This document shows positions 31,551 through 39,173 of a DNA stretch of 64,000 bases, piece by piece. Made by a program: the position numbers and the translations under genes. The notes under the pieces are model-generated. The model saw only the letters and a list, made by a program, of their open reading frames with translations. It did no database searches and had not been told where the DNA came from. Position 1 is the stretch's first letter. Each line of letters starts with the position of its first letter. Source of the DNA: Auritidibacter sp. Marseille-P8566 (GTDB lineage Bacteria > Actinomycetota > Actinomycetes > Actinomycetales > Microbacteriaceae); assembly GCA_945895375.1 (NCBI GenBank), contig CAMDEE010000001.1:1-64000 (forward strand). The letters are read 5' to 3'.

Positions 31551-31865
31551 TTAACGCAGCGGCTTAGCCCGCTTGAAAACCGTGACTAACACGGCAGAAA
31601 CTGCAATGATGACAGCAATTATTCCTGTTCCGGTGACCAGGTAGTGGAGAAGAGATTCATCAGAGAGCTGATATCCTTCAAAAGATAAAATTGTGAAGAA
31701 AATAGGGATAAGCATTCGTCGCAATGGCGTTGTAAAGTCGTCAGGGCTCTTTCTCTGAAAAAGTGAAGCGATCCAACCTATCCAAGTAATCCAAGACAAC
31801 CCCAACATTAGAGTCGCCACTACCCAAGGGTCGGCACTTTGAGAAATAACCATGGGATGAATCAA
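31551..31865 (-). CDS. Small multi-TM hypothetical protein; candidate immunity partner of the RHS protein
   Basis: 104 aa with about 3 hydrophobic segments; start codon overlaps the RHS stop codon (31862-31865), same strand. Function is inference. Confidence 0.6.
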   Translation of the reverse strand: MIHPMVISQSADPWVVATLMLGLSWITWIGWIASLFQRKSPDDFTTPLRRMLIPIFFTILSFEGYQLSDESLLHYLVTGTGIIAVIIAVSAVLVTVFKRAKPLR

Positions 31866-34800
31866 CGTTTTGTAACTTTCTTGACAGGCTTATTCGTATT
31901 GGTTTTGGAAAGGGGCTTCTTCGGAGTGGTTTTGAAAAGAGATTCTCCTCCAAAATATACACCTGCCGAATACGTATAACCTACTGCCATTTCTTGGCGA
32001 AAGTCTTTGAAAGTCTCGGGTGCGTGAACTTTGAAAAGACCACGAAACTGCAAGCCCTCCTTGGCCATCTTTCCGATTGGACCGCCTACCGCTCCAAACA
32101 AGCTGTCCGTCAACATGTTTTTGCCAACATACCACCAATAGTCCGCTCCCTTTAAGCGCTGCTCATTAGCCGAGGCTGTGCCGGAAATGAATCCAGATAG
32201 AGCACCAACTAAAAGGCCACCCACTAGGCAACCTATCACCGCTGTGACTGCGCAGATTGCGCCGCCTATGAGGCCACCAAAAACCGCGACGCCTAAGTCA
32301 AGCCAGCCATTCAACCCAGTAAAGTCACCTGCGTTGACGGGATCATTCGGATACGTATAACTGTTTTCGTTTCCGCCTTTGACAGGGTCTTTTGAGGTGA
32401 ATTGGTTGGTTTCAGGGTTATAGACTCTTGCTCCCATGAGGATGAGTCCTGTGGTGTTGGTTGCTCTTTCCTGTTGACCGTAGGTGCTGTAGTTGATTAG
32501 GTTTGTGTTGGTTTGGCTGGTTTGTGGGTTTCCAAACGAGTCATAAACACTCCACGCTCCAACAGAGTTGCTGTCTAGATCTAAGGTTGTGACTGTGTGT
32601 CCTCTTATGTCTGTCAACTGCATTGACGAGGTTTTGACAGTGCCTTTGAAAGTGGTGGTAACAGCAAGTCCTACACCTAGAGAGCCTGTGTAGATCTCGG
32701 TAGTGAGGTTCGCCCCAGACTGTTGGGTGGTCCATTCAGGGTTGTCTGAAGAGTCACTGTAATGTCTGACAGTTGTTAGGTTGCCTACTGTTTCGTTTAC
32801 TCTTCTACCTAGAGCATCATAGGTAAATGAGGTTGTTGAACCAGACTGGGTGATACCTGTCACCTGATCAACCAGGCTGTAAGTCAGGTTGATGCCTGCA
32901 TTATTTGCTGGAGCATCAACTGCAGGAATAAACGTATTTCTGCCTAGAGAGTCATAAACATAGCCACTAATTGTTAGCTGTGACTCGGAGTTGAAGGTAT
33001 TTGTTTTAGTTGTAGTAGCACCACAAACACCGATACTGCTGCTTGTTCTATCTCCTCGAGTGTTATAGCTGTAACTCTCTGAGAAACAGGAAGCGCCATT
33101 AGAAGACACTGTTGCAAGCCTTGAAGAAGAGTCATAACCATAAACAGTGACCTTCGGTGAAGCGCTGCTTGCTGAATCAGGTGCTAGCTCTCGAATTACC
33201 CGGCCATAGCCGTCGTATTCTCGACTCCAAGACAAAACAGTAGATGCCACAGATCCATAACTCATTGAAGAAATCTGGCCAGCATCATTGAATGTGTTGG
33301 TCTGAGTAACACCATTAGGACCAGACTGGTTGGTTAGCCTGCCGTATTCGTCATAAACACCCGAATACAGGTAACTGAAAGGTGTTCCAGCAGAACTCGA
33401 ACCAGTGATACTCATTCCGGTCACTAGAGCTCTAGGCTCTGAAGCATTGCCGTAAGTGTAAGAAGTAGTTGTTCTAGGAGAAACAACAGTTGAGACAGCT
33501 CCTGCAGCTAACTGACCTGAATCGACATAGTAAGTAGTTGTCTCTTCCCCCAAGCTATTTTTAGAGGCGACCTGTCTACCCCAGGCATCGAAAGTTTGAC
33601 TTGTTTCACTTTGCTTAACCCCTGCAACATAACTTTCAGTTTTAGTCTCTAAAAGAGACACTGGATCGTAAAGGTGCTTAGTAGATATCGATGCAGCACC
33701 TGATGCTGAAACAGTTGAAGTATCTGCTCTACCATCAGCCAGATAAGTGTTTGTTGTTGTTCTAACTAGAGAACCGAAACGATATTCTGCAACAGTCAAA
33801 GGATTCAACGCAGGATCATAGGCAGAGACATGACTCTTTGATGAAGGCAGTGTTTCACCTGTTTGTGAAATACAAAGCAGATCCTGCCAAGCAGGCTTCA
33901 AACCACAGTCAGGGAACAAAGTGTTTGCGGTCGCACTGTAATAAACAGTTACATCTGTTCTAGCATCAACACCATCAGATCCAGGAGCAACAGATTTAAC
34001 TTGCTGTCCAAGCTCATTGAAAACTGTCTTTGATGTTGAAACCAAAACCTCAGAACTATCAAAAGACTCTACGAGCGTTGGTATCCCTAAAGTCCAACCC
34101 GAAACAGTGCTGCCATCTTGAGGGGCATAATCCTTTTTTGTGCTACCCAACACTTGAATGACTGTATCTGGTGACTGCGCCAAGACTAACTCAACCTTTG
34201 AAGAAGTCAACAGGCCAGTTAACGGTTCACCCTCACGATAATCGTCATAAGTGAAACTTGTATATGTTCGAACTTCTTTAGGGTCGCCAGATGCATCCAA
34301 AACAGTCTTTTTAGGGGACCAAGTTTCAGATAGATAAGCACCATTAGGGACAGTGAAGCCATTTACCTGTGTATAAAACTTAGAGACACTGGCATACATA
34401 AACTCATCAAAGGTGCTGCCACCTTCAGTTGCTGTCCGATCTAATACGTTGTTTATACCCTGGCTATCGAATGTGGCGTAAACAACATTTTTAATTCGGA
34501 TTGTTGCGGTGTAGAGCCATTTTGTTTTACCGTAGCTAGCGGTGTTAGTTGGTTTACCGTCAACATCGAGGAATGTGAAATCAGCGTTACGCCAGAGCGC
34601 ACTTGTCGACGCTGGCACGATCACGTTTCCTGAAGCGTCCAGTGGGATAGTACTATCAGCCCCGAAAACGGCCGCCGCATAGAACGGGGCTGTTTCTTGA
34701 CCCCAAAGCAAAGTAGTGGAAAGTGGCAAGTTCGGCAAGAAACCAGTGTTACCTGAAGGGTTCAGGTCATAAACAAAGGTTTGCTCCACGTTTGAGGAAG

Positions 34801-37800
34801 CAACCCAACTACTGTTTAGGCTTCTAGCGACCTGCACAAGCCTGCCTGAAGCATCATATTTGAATGTGTAAGGAGCGAAACCACTCACAGAAACTTTAGA
34901 AAGCTTCCCTAAACCGTTGTATTCATAGGAGACAGTGGAGCCGTTTGTGTTATCTGTGACCTGCATCAACACCCCAGATTCATAGGTGTATGACTTCTTC
35001 AAAACTGTTACTGGTGAACCAGTAACAAGATCTAGGTATTTGTAACTTATAGTTGCAAGCAGTCCTGCAGCGTTATAGGTGTAAACCAAACCTTGAGTGA
35101 CAGAGGTACCCTGACAGCCAACTGTTCCTAAAGCTGCATATCCTGAAGCAGATACACGACCTGATGAATCAAATGTGGTTATAACTGCTCTACTAGAGGC
35201 ATTCGACCGAGCACAAAGTAATCGCCAATCAGCGTTTACTGGTTTAGTGAAGTTAGTGGTCGCCTGATCTGTTTCAACAACAGTCAACACATTACCGTCA
35301 ACAGTAACTTTCAGGTTCGCAGCTTTAGCTTCATCAGAAACAGGAGTCAAAGTTGTTGTGCCACTGAATTCTAAAACATCTGAGTCAGGACTAATCAAAT
35401 AGTAATGACCATTATCAGGATCGTTAGTGACTCTGTATCCAGCTAGAGCTGTCGCATCGCTAGAAAATGATGCTGACCAGCCTTCACCAAACACTGAAGA
35501 CTGAGTATCTGTGAAGAAAGAATTACCGGTAAAGGTTCTAGAAACAGATAGGGACTGTAAACCAACCTGTTGACTGTAATCGGTAGTCGACATGTTGAAT
35601 TTGCCGGAAACCAAAGAAACAATTCCAGGACCTGCTGATGCGACTGCGCTATCTAAACTATTAGGCAACCTTGTTACAGAGAAACCTGAATCATCTGAGC
35701 AAAACCATTCAGCGATAGAGGAATAGTAGAAACAAAAACGCAGATCGATAGTTACAGGAATGTTCTGCGGCAAGGCGGGAGCGCTGAAAACACCGATGTT
35801 AGACACATTTAGTTTGTAATCGTAAACACCTTTCAAACCTGATTTCGTAGTCAAAGGAATGTTTGTTTCAGCTACATCCCAAGCAGTGGAAGTTCCTTGT
35901 TTACGCCACTCAATAGTGGCAGAAGATGGTTGTAAACCAGCCATCGGAGCGCCGTACCCCGAAACCATAACGCTAGATGCAACGGTAGGTCCTGTCAATG
36001 GAGAAATAGCTCCCACATAGCCGAAAGTCATTGTGTGTGAAGCGGTGACAGATGCGATGCCATTTGTTTTCTTAGCGACTGCTGTTATTCGTCGCTGGAA
36101 AGAACCAGATGGGAGAGATATTGTTTGACTCAAAGACCCGTCAACGTTTGTTTGATAATTTACTGGCGCGGATCCATCCACACTGATGCTAAGCATGTTT
36201 GTTCTATAACTTTCAGGAGCTGCAGCAGAAGACACAGTACAAGTCACCGGCACAGTTGGTGTGTATCCACCTTGGTATCCGTTTGCGTAAGGACAGGTAA
36301 TAGTAGGTGTCAGTGGTTGTGTCGCTTCAACCTTGAAGGTAAGCACCGGAGATAAGGATTCAGAACTGACTCGACTGTCAGAACTCGATGCTCTAACAAA
36401 ATAGGTCTGATTATTAGTCAAAGCTGTTGTTGGTTTACAGCTTCCTGAACTGCCGCTTGAAACAATGACAGTACACAAAGTACTAATAGCCGTTGTAGAA
36501 GTTGCTGTTGGGTAAGACTTGAAAGCTAAAGTTACATTTCCACCATCAGGGTCAACAGCTTTAGAAGTGAAAGTAGGCTTCCAAGAACCAACACTCAAGT
36601 AACCAGAATTCTGGATTGAATCACTAACGGTAGGAGTTGCAGCAGTGCCAGGGTAACGGTTGTAATTAATGGTTAGTGAAGGCTTATTGTTTGAAGCATT
36701 CGAAGAGTTGAATCTCTTCCAACCAAAACTATCTGCCTCATTAGAGGCCTTAATGCCAAAGCCCGCTCGATTAGAAATAACCACAGGCATGTTAGCTGCC
36801 AGATTAGTAACATCCGTAGTTATGTTAGCTGCCGGACAACTCGAGTTATAGCCCGCCGCAACACTCTTAGCAACACCAACACCACCAATAGTTGGGGCAT
36901 TACCCCACCTAGTTGAAGGAGTGGCAGGTGAAATAGCGTAAATACTAAAGTTTCGTGCAGTACAAGACCAAGACCAGTTCAAATACAACTTCAAGTTAGC
37001 CGAAATGATGTCTTGGCCAATCCAGCCAGTTGAATCAAAGTTCAAGTATGAGCGGTAGATGGATGAACCACCATCAGGGGTGCCAACTAAAAGTTCTGTT
37101 GAGGACTGAAAATCAGTCGTCGGATAAACGTTAGTCACATAAGTATCAAAAGTTGGATCTAAAACAACTGCCGGATCCACAATGACTGGATACTCTAAAT
37201 CTTCACGCTCAAAAAATGTCCCATCAACAGCTAAATCTAAAACACCAGAAGCACCAATAACCGGTTCCAGTTCAGAAGTTATAGGCGCTGTTGCACCATC
37301 AGCAGAGTCATACATGAAAGGAGTGGGAACCGATCCAAGCACCTGGCTTCCAGAAACAAACTCGTATCCGCCATTACTGTCGGCTTGCAGACGAACATTC
37401 TTGCCTTTAACAAGAAGCTTCAACTTATCTAGAGTTGCCGCATCAGGTTTAGCTTTAACCTCAAAAGACTGTTCAAAACCAGAAGCATCCAGGCGAATCA
37501 GCAAATCAACATTAGGTAAAACATCAACAAAGCGAGCTGTGTCCTCAAACAACACAGGCTTAGGTAAAGCCCCATCCCAGCCAAAACCAAAATGGTTACC
37601 ATCAGAGCCAGATATACTCACTAAACCATCTGCTGCAACTTCTGCAGCGGGACCACCACCAGATACCTTGAAATCAAAACGACCAGATTTAGCTTGAACA
37701 AAACCTGTATCATCAAATACCAAAGTGAAATCAAGATCACGCCACCCATACTCCCCAGCACCATCGCGAACCCTAACTGGAGCACCAAAAGACTCAGTAG

Positions 37801-38014
37801 TTAGAGTCCCATCAGGATTAACCCAAGTTGTCGAAAGCTCAGACAACTCAGAAATCACCAAAATACGGTGATTAGTTATAGCGGCCTGCAGCCTAGCTGA
37901 AATGTAATCCTCAGCAGCATAACTAGGTGCAACAGTGAAAGCTTGAGCAGGTGTAACACCCTGCAACAGCAAAGAAAGACCAACTACAACAGAAACAAAT
38001 TTAAAAACCTTCAA
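31862..38014 (-). CDS. Secreted RHS/YD-repeat protein with N-terminal DNRLRE-like domain and C-terminal variable tip
   Basis: Probable TTG start at 38014 gives signal peptide LKVFKFVSVVVGLSLLLQGVTPAQAF; DPTFDTYVTNVYPTTDFQSSTELLVG...RSYLNFD; many YD repeats (YEYNGLGKLSKVS, YDASGRLVQVA); RHS core end RVYNPETNQFTSKDPVKGGNENSYTYPNDPVNAGDFTGLNG. Confidence 0.92.
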   Translation of the reverse strand: MKVFKFVSVVVGLSLLLQGVTPAQAFTVAPSYAAEDYISARLQAAITNHRILVISELSELSTTWVNPDGTLTTESFGAPVRVRDGAGEYGWRDLDFTLVFDDTGFVQAKSGRFDFKVSGGGPAAEVAADGLVSISGSDGNHFGFGWDGALPKPVLFEDTARFVDVLPNVDLLIRLDASGFEQSFEVKAKPDAATLDKLKLLVKGKNVRLQADSNGGYEFVSGSQVLGSVPTPFMYDSADGATAPITSELEPVIGASGVLDLAVDGTFFEREDLEYPVIVDPAVVLDPTFDTYVTNVYPTTDFQSSTELLVGTPDGGSSIYRSYLNFDSTGWIGQDIISANLKLYLNWSWSCTARNFSIYAISPATPSTRWGNAPTIGGVGVAKSVAAGYNSSCPAANITTDVTNLAANMPVVISNRAGFGIKASNEADSFGWKRFNSSNASNNKPSLTINYNRYPGTAATPTVSDSIQNSGYLSVGSWKPTFTSKAVDPDGGNVTLAFKSYPTATSTTAISTLCTVIVSSGSSGSCKPTTALTNNQTYFVRASSSDSRVSSESLSPVLTFKVEATQPLTPTITCPYANGYQGGYTPTVPVTCTVSSAAAPESYRTNMLSISVDGSAPVNYQTNVDGSLSQTISLPSGSFQRRITAVAKKTNGIASVTASHTMTFGYVGAISPLTGPTVASSVMVSGYGAPMAGLQPSSATIEWRKQGTSTAWDVAETNIPLTTKSGLKGVYDYKLNVSNIGVFSAPALPQNIPVTIDLRFCFYYSSIAEWFCSDDSGFSVTRLPNSLDSAVASAGPGIVSLVSGKFNMSTTDYSQQVGLQSLSVSRTFTGNSFFTDTQSSVFGEGWSASFSSDATALAGYRVTNDPDNGHYYLISPDSDVLEFSGTTTLTPVSDEAKAANLKVTVDGNVLTVVETDQATTNFTKPVNADWRLLCARSNASSRAVITTFDSSGRVSASGYAALGTVGCQGTSVTQGLVYTYNAAGLLATISYKYLDLVTGSPVTVLKKSYTYESGVLMQVTDNTNGSTVSYEYNGLGKLSKVSVSGFAPYTFKYDASGRLVQVARSLNSSWVASSNVEQTFVYDLNPSGNTGFLPNLPLSTTLLWGQETAPFYAAAVFGADSTIPLDASGNVIVPASTSALWRNADFTFLDVDGKPTNTASYGKTKWLYTATIRIKNVVYATFDSQGINNVLDRTATEGGSTFDEFMYASVSKFYTQVNGFTVPNGAYLSETWSPKKTVLDASGDPKEVRTYTSFTYDDYREGEPLTGLLTSSKVELVLAQSPDTVIQVLGSTKKDYAPQDGSTVSGWTLGIPTLVESFDSSEVLVSTSKTVFNELGQQVKSVAPGSDGVDARTDVTVYYSATANTLFPDCGLKPAWQDLLCISQTGETLPSSKSHVSAYDPALNPLTVAEYRFGSLVRTTTNTYLADGRADTSTVSASGAASISTKHLYDPVSLLETKTESYVAGVKQSETSQTFDAWGRQVASKNSLGEETTTYYVDSGQLAAGAVSTVVSPRTTTSYTYGNASEPRALVTGMSITGSSSAGTPFSYLYSGVYDEYGRLTNQSGPNGVTQTNTFNDAGQISSMSYGSVASTVLSWSREYDGYGRVIRELAPDSASSASPKVTVYGYDSSSRLATVSSNGASCFSESYSYNTRGDRTSSSIGVCGATTTKTNTFNSESQLTISGYVYDSLGRNTFIPAVDAPANNAGINLTYSLVDQVTGITQSGSTTSFTYDALGRRVNETVGNLTTVRHYSDSSDNPEWTTQQSGANLTTEIYTGSLGVGLAVTTTFKGTVKTSSMQLTDIRGHTVTTLDLDSNSVGAWSVYDSFGNPQTSQTNTNLINYSTYGQQERATNTTGLILMGARVYNPETNQFTSKDPVKGGNENSYTYPNDPVNAGDFTGLNGWLDLGVAVFGGLIGGAICAVTAVIGCLVGGLLVGALSGFISGTASANEQRLKGADYWWYVGKNMLTDSLFGAVGGPIGKMAKEGLQFRGLFKVHAPETFKDFRQEMAVGYTYSAGVYFGGESLFKTTPKKPLSKTNTNKPVKKVTKR

Positions 38015-38258: not shown

Positions 38259-39173
38259 TTACAGACCTGAATAAACGTGTAATCCCTTGAAGTACATATT
38301 TACGATGGTGAAGTTGAAGATGATGGCTGTGAAACCGATGAGGGTTAGCCATGCTGCTCTCTTGCCTTCCCAGCCTCTGGTTGTAGTGGCGTGAAGGTAA
38401 GCAGCGTAAATGGTCCAGATGATGAAGGTCCAGACCTCTTTAGTGTCCCAGCCCCAGAAGCGGTGCCAGGCTTTATCAGCCCAGATAGCTCCTGCAATAA
38501 GAGTGAAAGACCAAAGGATAAAACCAATGATGTTGAACTGGTAGTAGGTTCTCTCCAGCTTTTCTGACTTAGGAAATACCTTTAGGAACTTGGTGAAGCC
38601 CTGTCCTGCCTTTGTCTTAGAGGCCTTCATTCTCTTGCTCTCTTTCAAGATGTGAATGAGTGAGAGTGTTGCGCCGATAGTAAAGAAAGCTGTTGCAAGA
38701 ATTGCAACGCTTACGTGAATAACTAGCCAGTAATCCTGAAGAGCTGGGAGAAGTGATTCAACCTGAACATAGAACAAGGTGTTAGCCGAACCAATAACTA
38801 GAACAACGAAACCAGCTAGGAATGAAGAGATGAATCTTAGATCTTTGAATAACAAGGCGATCATGTAAATCGCTGAAACTACAAATGCTCCAGAGATGGA
38901 GAACTCATACATGTTTGCCCATGGCACACGGTTCGCAGCAATACCTCTGGTTAGAACTCCAACACCATTAGCAACAACACCTAGGCCAAAGAGAACTAGA
39001 CCGATGTTGTCTAAACGATTAGCGAACTTATCCTTCTTACCCTTGCCACCTGCTCTTTTAGTTAGAGCCCAGGTTAGAACGATGAATGCGAATGCATAGA
39101 AAGTCAGCGCAACAAGAACAATGATTCTTGAAAGTGTCGCGAGTTCTGGGTTTAGTGCAATTTCTGGTGTCAT
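38259..39173 (-). CDS. ccsA: Cytochrome c biogenesis protein CcsA/ResC
   Basis: WANMYEFSISGAFV, GAIWADKAWHRFWGWDTKEVWTFIIW tryptophan-rich haem-handling motif. Confidence 0.95.
   Translation of the reverse strand: MTPEIALNPELATLSRIIVLVALTFYAFAFIVLTWALTKRAGGKGKKDKFANRLDNIGLVLFGLGVVANGVGVLTRGIAANRVPWANMYEFSISGAFVVSAIYMIALLFKDLRFISSFLAGFVVLVIGSANTLFYVQVESLLPALQDYWLVIHVSVAILATAFFTIGATLSLIHILKESKRMKASKTKAGQGFTKFLKVFPKSEKLERTYYQFNIIGFILWSFTLIAGAIWADKAWHRFWGWDTKEVWTFIIWTIYAAYLHATTTRGWEGKRAAWLTLIGFTAIIFNFTIVNMYFKGLHVYSGL

What the first reader, a model, noticed from the sequence alone, without database searches (positions are those of the whole stretch)
31551..38014. Sec-secreted RHS protein with a 4-bp-overlapping small multi-TM ORF: candidate polymorphic toxin-immunity pair
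Seen: a 2.05-kaa RHS/YD-repeat protein with signal peptide, DNRLRE-like domain and RHS core end (RVYNPETNQFTSKDPVKGG...DPVNAGDFTGLNG), followed by a 148-aa tip. A 104-aa ORF with about 3 TM segments on the same strand starts inside the RHS stop codon. Established: RHS proteins commonly carry toxic C-terminal tips followed immediately by an immunity gene. Inference: the small membrane protein is the immunity factor.
Basis: partly seen in the sequence, partly recalled or inferred. Interest (0 to 1): 0.75.

Follow-up and report, generated by a model that had tools for sequence, protein, structure and literature searches.

The report
RHS toxin with paired membrane immunity gene
A small freshwater-type actinobacterium carries a very large secreted protein whose swappable end piece looks like a membrane-damaging weapon against rival bacteria, followed directly by a small membrane protein that most likely protects the owner; this is a well-known type of weapon-and-shield pair with a not yet described end piece.

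Summary
The RHS gene (31862..38014, minus strand, TTG start) has a signal peptide, a DNRLRE/CBM96 domain and an RHS core end, then a 150-aa tip. A 104-aa membrane ORF overlaps its stop by 4 bp. The ORF is a real gene: it is under purifying selection (dN/dS about 0.15-0.25) in two congeners. It occurs only in the 3 of 67 congeners that carry this tip, and 11 congeners tested lack both at the same chromosomal site. Across 18 RHS tip loci in the genus, all 12 glycine-rich hydrophobic tips are followed by a multi-TM ORF; all 6 polar or GIY-YIG-like tips are followed by a soluble ORF, LRR-like where modelled. This supports toxin-immunity pairing and points to a membrane-acting toxin with a membrane immunity protein, as in Tse5/Tsi5 and the CDI ionophores. 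The tip has two parts: a glycine-zipper hairpin with two invariant cysteines, conserved across six clades, and a cationic C-half that cannot be aligned between clades; nor can the partner proteins. Toxicity and immunity were not tested. I file it as a new member of a known kind: a Sec-exported, WapA-like polymorphic toxin with a tip and partner matching no curated family model.

The parts
31862..38014 (-). RHS protein gene, 2050 aa from TTG 38014 (open frame continues up to ATG 38122)
   Evidence: the paralogue has an in-frame stop just upstream of its TTG start
37940..38014 (-). Sec-type signal peptide (MKVFKFVSVVVGLSLLLQGVTPAQA)
   Evidence: read directly from the sequence; a similar leader is present in the paralogue L002
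36665..37147 (-). DNRLRE / CBM96 domain
   Evidence: NF033679 E=7.4e-25, PF24517 E=2.8e-16
32312..32545 (-). RHS-associated core end (TIGR03696)
   Evidence: E=2.7e-12
32069..32314 (-). Tip N-half: glycine-zipper hydrophobic hairpin (G33xxxG37xxxG41xxxG45; invariant Cys21 and Cys29)
   Evidence: alignable between six tip clades; GxxxG excess over shuffles, one tip per clade 29 vs 17.2
31865..32068 (-). Tip C-half: cationic, clade-specific (net charge +9)
   Evidence: 0 of 32 between-clade pairs alignable
31551..31865 (-). Candidate immunity gene, 104 aa from TTG (100 aa from ATG 31853), about 3 TM segments; N-out/C-in topology read by eye from charges
   Evidence: purifying selection and co-occurrence; AF2 three helices
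30347..31324 (+). menC, flank of the insertion site
   Evidence: menC-ccsB adjacency without RHS in 11 congeners
38259..39173 (-). ccsB, other flank of the insertion site

Best explanation
This is a Sec-exported polymorphic toxin with its immunity gene. The RHS shell is expected to hold the tip, which is released by core-end cleavage and delivered to neighbouring cells. There the glycine-zipper hairpin inserts into the cytoplasmic membrane and dissipates its potential. The overlapping small ORF encodes an integral membrane protein that binds the cognate tip in the producer's membrane and blocks channel formation. The clade-specific C-half is the likely recognition part. Shown here: gene reality, linkage, co-occurrence, tip-type/partner-type association, and the modular tip. 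Inferred: export, cleavage, delivery, depolarisation, and neutralisation.
For: The tip and ORF are inserted together between menC and ccsB in three species; 11 congeners tested have neither at that site. The ORF is found only with this tip and evolves under purifying selection. In the genus, 12 of 12 glycine-rich hydrophobic tips are followed by multi-TM ORFs, and 6 of 6 polar or GIY-YIG-like tips by non-TM ORFs. The same tip type in other genera (L041, L037) also has multi-TM partners. No polar catalytic-type residue is invariant over six homologous tips, only W, G, C, L, F and P. Glycine zippers exceed shuffles. Core and tip have separate histories: core closer to the paralogue, tip closer to the syntenic orthologue. 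Published parallels: Tse5/Tsi5 (PMC9637101), CDI ionophores with 72-100-aa hydrophobic immunity proteins and a glycine zipper (PMC11630599), EsxX (PMC12744356), TspA/TsaI (PMC7456083).
Against: No toxicity data. The AF2 tip model is unreliable (pLDDT 44). Hydrophobic segments also serve as entry domains in toxins with enzymatic ends, so the hairpin need not be the toxic part. Partners of homologous tips from different clades show no detectable homology, so a simple co-evolving pair is not visible beyond clade level. The tip classification was made by eye with the partners in view, and the loci are not independent.
Confidence: 0.68

Rival explanations
1. Entry-domain model: the conserved hydrophobic N-half only carries the toxin across the target membrane. 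The variable cationic C-half (55-75 aa) is the actual toxin, possibly with an intracellular target, and the TM protein blocks uptake or captures the tip at the membrane.
For: The conserved/variable split of the tip. GIY-YIG tips in the same genus have the same layout: hydrophobic segment, then nuclease. Entry domains precede toxins in CDI effectors (PMC11630599). Zhang et al. suggest two-TM immunity proteins may act by preventing uptake (PMC3482391).
Against: The C-half matches no enzyme model and no catalytic-type residue is conserved over six tips. All partners of this class are membrane proteins, whereas those of the GIY-YIG tips are soluble.
Confidence: 0.22
2. Non-toxic surface protein: the hydrophobic tip anchors the RHS protein in the producer's own membrane and the small ORF is an anchoring or export partner.
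For: The tip is hydrophobic and the CBM96 domain could bind glycans.
Against: Tips are swapped between homologous cores and include GIY-YIG nuclease-like domains followed by LRR-like proteins. LRR proteins are listed among immunity proteins (PMC3482391). An export partner should track the conserved N-terminal part, not the tip.
Confidence: 0.06
3. Decayed locus: a formerly active pair that is no longer expressed or functional.
For: RHS genes are present in a minority of congeners.
Against: Full-length open frames and purifying selection in core, tip and ORF.
Confidence: 0.04

Closest known systems
WapA-type RHS toxins of Gram-positive bacteria (Streptococcus suis WapA, PMC12704120)
   Same: Signal peptide, RHS core, variable C-terminal toxin and an adjacent immunity gene
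   Different: No SecF-like or sortase gene directly adjacent here; the tip is of a different, hydrophobic class
Tse5/Tsi5 of Pseudomonas aeruginosa (PMC9637101, PMC10684867)
   Same: RHS protein with a roughly 150-aa non-enzymatic, membrane-active C-terminus and a TM immunity protein
   Different: Tse5 is delivered by T6SS; no sequence similarity of tip or immunity protein was detected in the PDB sequence search
CDI ionophore toxins with CdiI (PMC11630599)
   Same: Modular tips, a glycine zipper, small hydrophobic immunity proteins, strong polymorphism
   Different: CdiA scaffold and outer-membrane delivery; immunity proteins are two-helix hairpins; the C-terminal half is the ionophore there
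EsxX/ExiCD and TspA/TsaI of Staphylococcus aureus (PMC12744356, PMC7456083)
   Same: Glycine-zipper or depolarising toxin neutralised by polytopic membrane proteins in a Gram-positive
   Different: LXG/T7SS scaffold instead of RHS/Sec

Membership tests
RHS polymorphic toxin (WapA-like) | RHS/YD repeats and RHS-associated core end | tested here: met
   TIGR03696 E=2.7e-12, PF05593 E=2.1e-10
RHS polymorphic toxin (WapA-like) | Variable C-terminal tip on a conserved core | tested here: met
   Identity to the paralogue is 0.91 over the last 100 aa of the core, then 0.34 in the tip; many tip types in the genus
RHS polymorphic toxin (WapA-like) | Sec signal peptide | tested here: inconclusive
   Clear by eye with an AQA cleavage site; no predictor run
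RHS polymorphic toxin (WapA-like) | Immunity gene directly downstream that neutralises the tip | tested here: inconclusive
   Linkage and co-occurrence met; neutralisation not testable here
RHS polymorphic toxin (WapA-like) | Toxic C-terminus | not testable with these tools
   Needs expression
Membrane-depolarising (glycine-zipper) toxins | Glycine-zipper motif in a hydrophobic helix | tested here: met
   Excess of GxxxG over shuffles across clades
Membrane-depolarising (glycine-zipper) toxins | Dissipates membrane potential | not testable with these tools
   Needs a depolarisation assay
Tse5-CT family | Sequence similarity to Tse5-CT | tested here: not met
   Tip profile finds no Tse5 chain in PDB sequences; only a weak core match in the full-length search

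The most novel reading that the evidence does not exclude
The tip N-half is an undescribed glycine-zipper hairpin with a conserved cysteine pair. It serves as a shared membrane-insertion module, while its immunity partners have been replaced repeatedly by unrelated membrane proteins, so that one toxin architecture is neutralised by non-homologous immunity families recognising the variable C-half.
Probability: 0.3. Interest if true: 0.58.

Novelty: new member of a known kind. Interest (0 to 1): 0.4.

Why it matters
It shows that streamlined 1.3-1.5 Mb Microbacteriaceae genomes, in a genus whose public records found here are largely lake-type metagenome assemblies, keep 2-kaa antibacterial weapons with exchangeable tips. 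Sec-exported RHS toxins with membrane-acting tips in Actinomycetota did not turn up in the papers I searched. The genus supplies a natural series of homologous tips with non-homologous membrane partners, suited to testing which half of the tip is toxic and which half is recognised.

Tried and rejected
Pfam, NCBIfam and PADLOC searches gave no family for tip or ORF. Romo1, DUF1097 and DUF443 hits are below their cut-offs. PDB profile searches: the Crov588 hit of the tip profile has no single supported stretch and looks like a composition artefact; none for the ORF. AF2 of the tip was too poor for a fold search (pLDDT 44), so none was run. A Mantel test of tip against partner similarity within the glycine-rich set was not significant (p=0.08; one per clade p=0.43; with GIY tips p=0.012), because partners are alignable only within clades. 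The tip profile found nothing beyond the own genome in 396 genomes drawn from the order. The N-half profile found one convincing match outside the genus (G147); the rest look like noise. No relatives in viral contigs or plasmids. Two family searches and one script failed through my own coordinate or motif errors and were repeated.

Full report
The RHS gene on the minus strand is open from 38122 (ATG) to 31862. The protein has a signal peptide by eye, a DNRLRE/CBM96 domain that appears when the segment is scanned alone, RHS repeats and an RHS-associated core end, and then a 150-aa tip. The small ORF starts at TTG 31865 and overlaps the RHS stop by 4 bp.

The small ORF is a real gene. Orthologues with the same TTG overlap lie behind the same tip in G025 and G026, with NG86 dN/dS of about 0.15-0.25. 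It is found in 3 of 67 congeners, exactly those with this tip. In a family sample of 250 genomes the only matches outside the genus are weak and carry stop codons. In 11 further congeners examined the menC-ccsB junction holds neither gene; in one of them (G041) another 157-aa ORF lies there. The RHS gene and the small ORF therefore most likely came in as one unit.

The locus behaves as a polymorphic toxin. The genome holds a second RHS gene (G000:C6) with 74% identity overall. Identity is about 0.9 over the last 400 aa of the core and then drops to 0.34 in the tip. The window core is closer to this paralogue than to the syntenic orthologue in G025 (74 versus 58%), but the tip is closer to the orthologue (71 versus 43%). 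Core and tip thus have different histories.

Eighteen RHS tip loci were found in 14 of 67 genomes of the genus. Twelve have glycine-rich hydrophobic tips and are followed by small multi-TM ORFs. Six have polar tips, most of them GIY-YIG-like (Pfam at or just below cut-off), and are followed by soluble proteins of 258-290 aa, LRR-like where modelled. The classes were assigned by eye after seeing the partners and the loci are related, so this is an association, not a formal test. Outside the genus, L037 and L041 carry tips of the same type with multi-TM partners; in L041 the partner again overlaps by 4 bp. I wrote the prediction down before the wide N-half search. That search added no new convincing case beyond G147, the genome of L041.

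The tip has two parts. Residues 1-82 are hydrophobic and glycine-rich, with two invariant cysteines (Cys21, Cys29). They can be aligned in 28 of 32 between-clade pairs (Z>5). Residues 83-150 are cationic and cannot be aligned in any of 32 such pairs. Partner proteins too are alignable only within clades. Glycine-zipper patterns exceed composition-preserving shuffles. Invariant residues over six tips are W, G, C, L, F and P only, which argues against an enzyme.

The most likely mechanism is membrane depolarisation by the tip and neutralisation by the membrane protein, as shown for Tse5/Tsi5 (PMC9637101), the CDI ionophores (PMC11630599), TspA/TsaI (PMC7456083) and EsxX (PMC12744356). Zhang et al. 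list a single pore-forming domain (Tox-WTIP) and two-TM immunity families among polymorphic toxins (PMC3482391). Sec export of RHS toxins with adjacent immunity genes is documented for S. suis WapA (PMC12704120). The main rival is that the hairpin is only an entry domain and the C-half is the toxin.

One observation stays unexplained. Between the window and G026 the tip has dS 0.17-0.19, while the core just upstream has 0.60, the small ORF 0.66 and menC 0.95. The same trend is seen against G025. Tip-only recombination between species, or constraint on synonymous sites, could cause this.

Noticed in passing
window 31865..32314 versus G026 (L004): Synonymous divergence of the tip (0.17-0.19) is far lower than that of the core, the small ORF and menC; possible tip-only exchange between species.
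   Followed up: partly
L005, L086, L087, L108: RHS tips with GIY-YIG-like ends followed by 258-290-aa soluble proteins (LRR-like in L086, E=4e-6) in the same genus; a second toxin-immunity type.
   Followed up: partly
G133 contigs C31, C32, C37: Several RHS core-end copies with differing open-frame lengths close together, as in tandem orphan tip cassettes.
   Followed up: no
L088 (Propionicicella superfundia) and L094 (Dactylosporangium fulvum): RHS tips with a hydrophobic C-x(6-8)-C hairpin and downstream TM ORFs; they resemble the window tip by eye but did not match the N-half profile.
   Followed up: partly
L067 1030..1503: In G041 the menC-ccsB gap holds a 157-aa ORF with N-terminal cysteine motifs and C-terminal hydrophobic segments instead of the RHS pair.
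   Followed up: no
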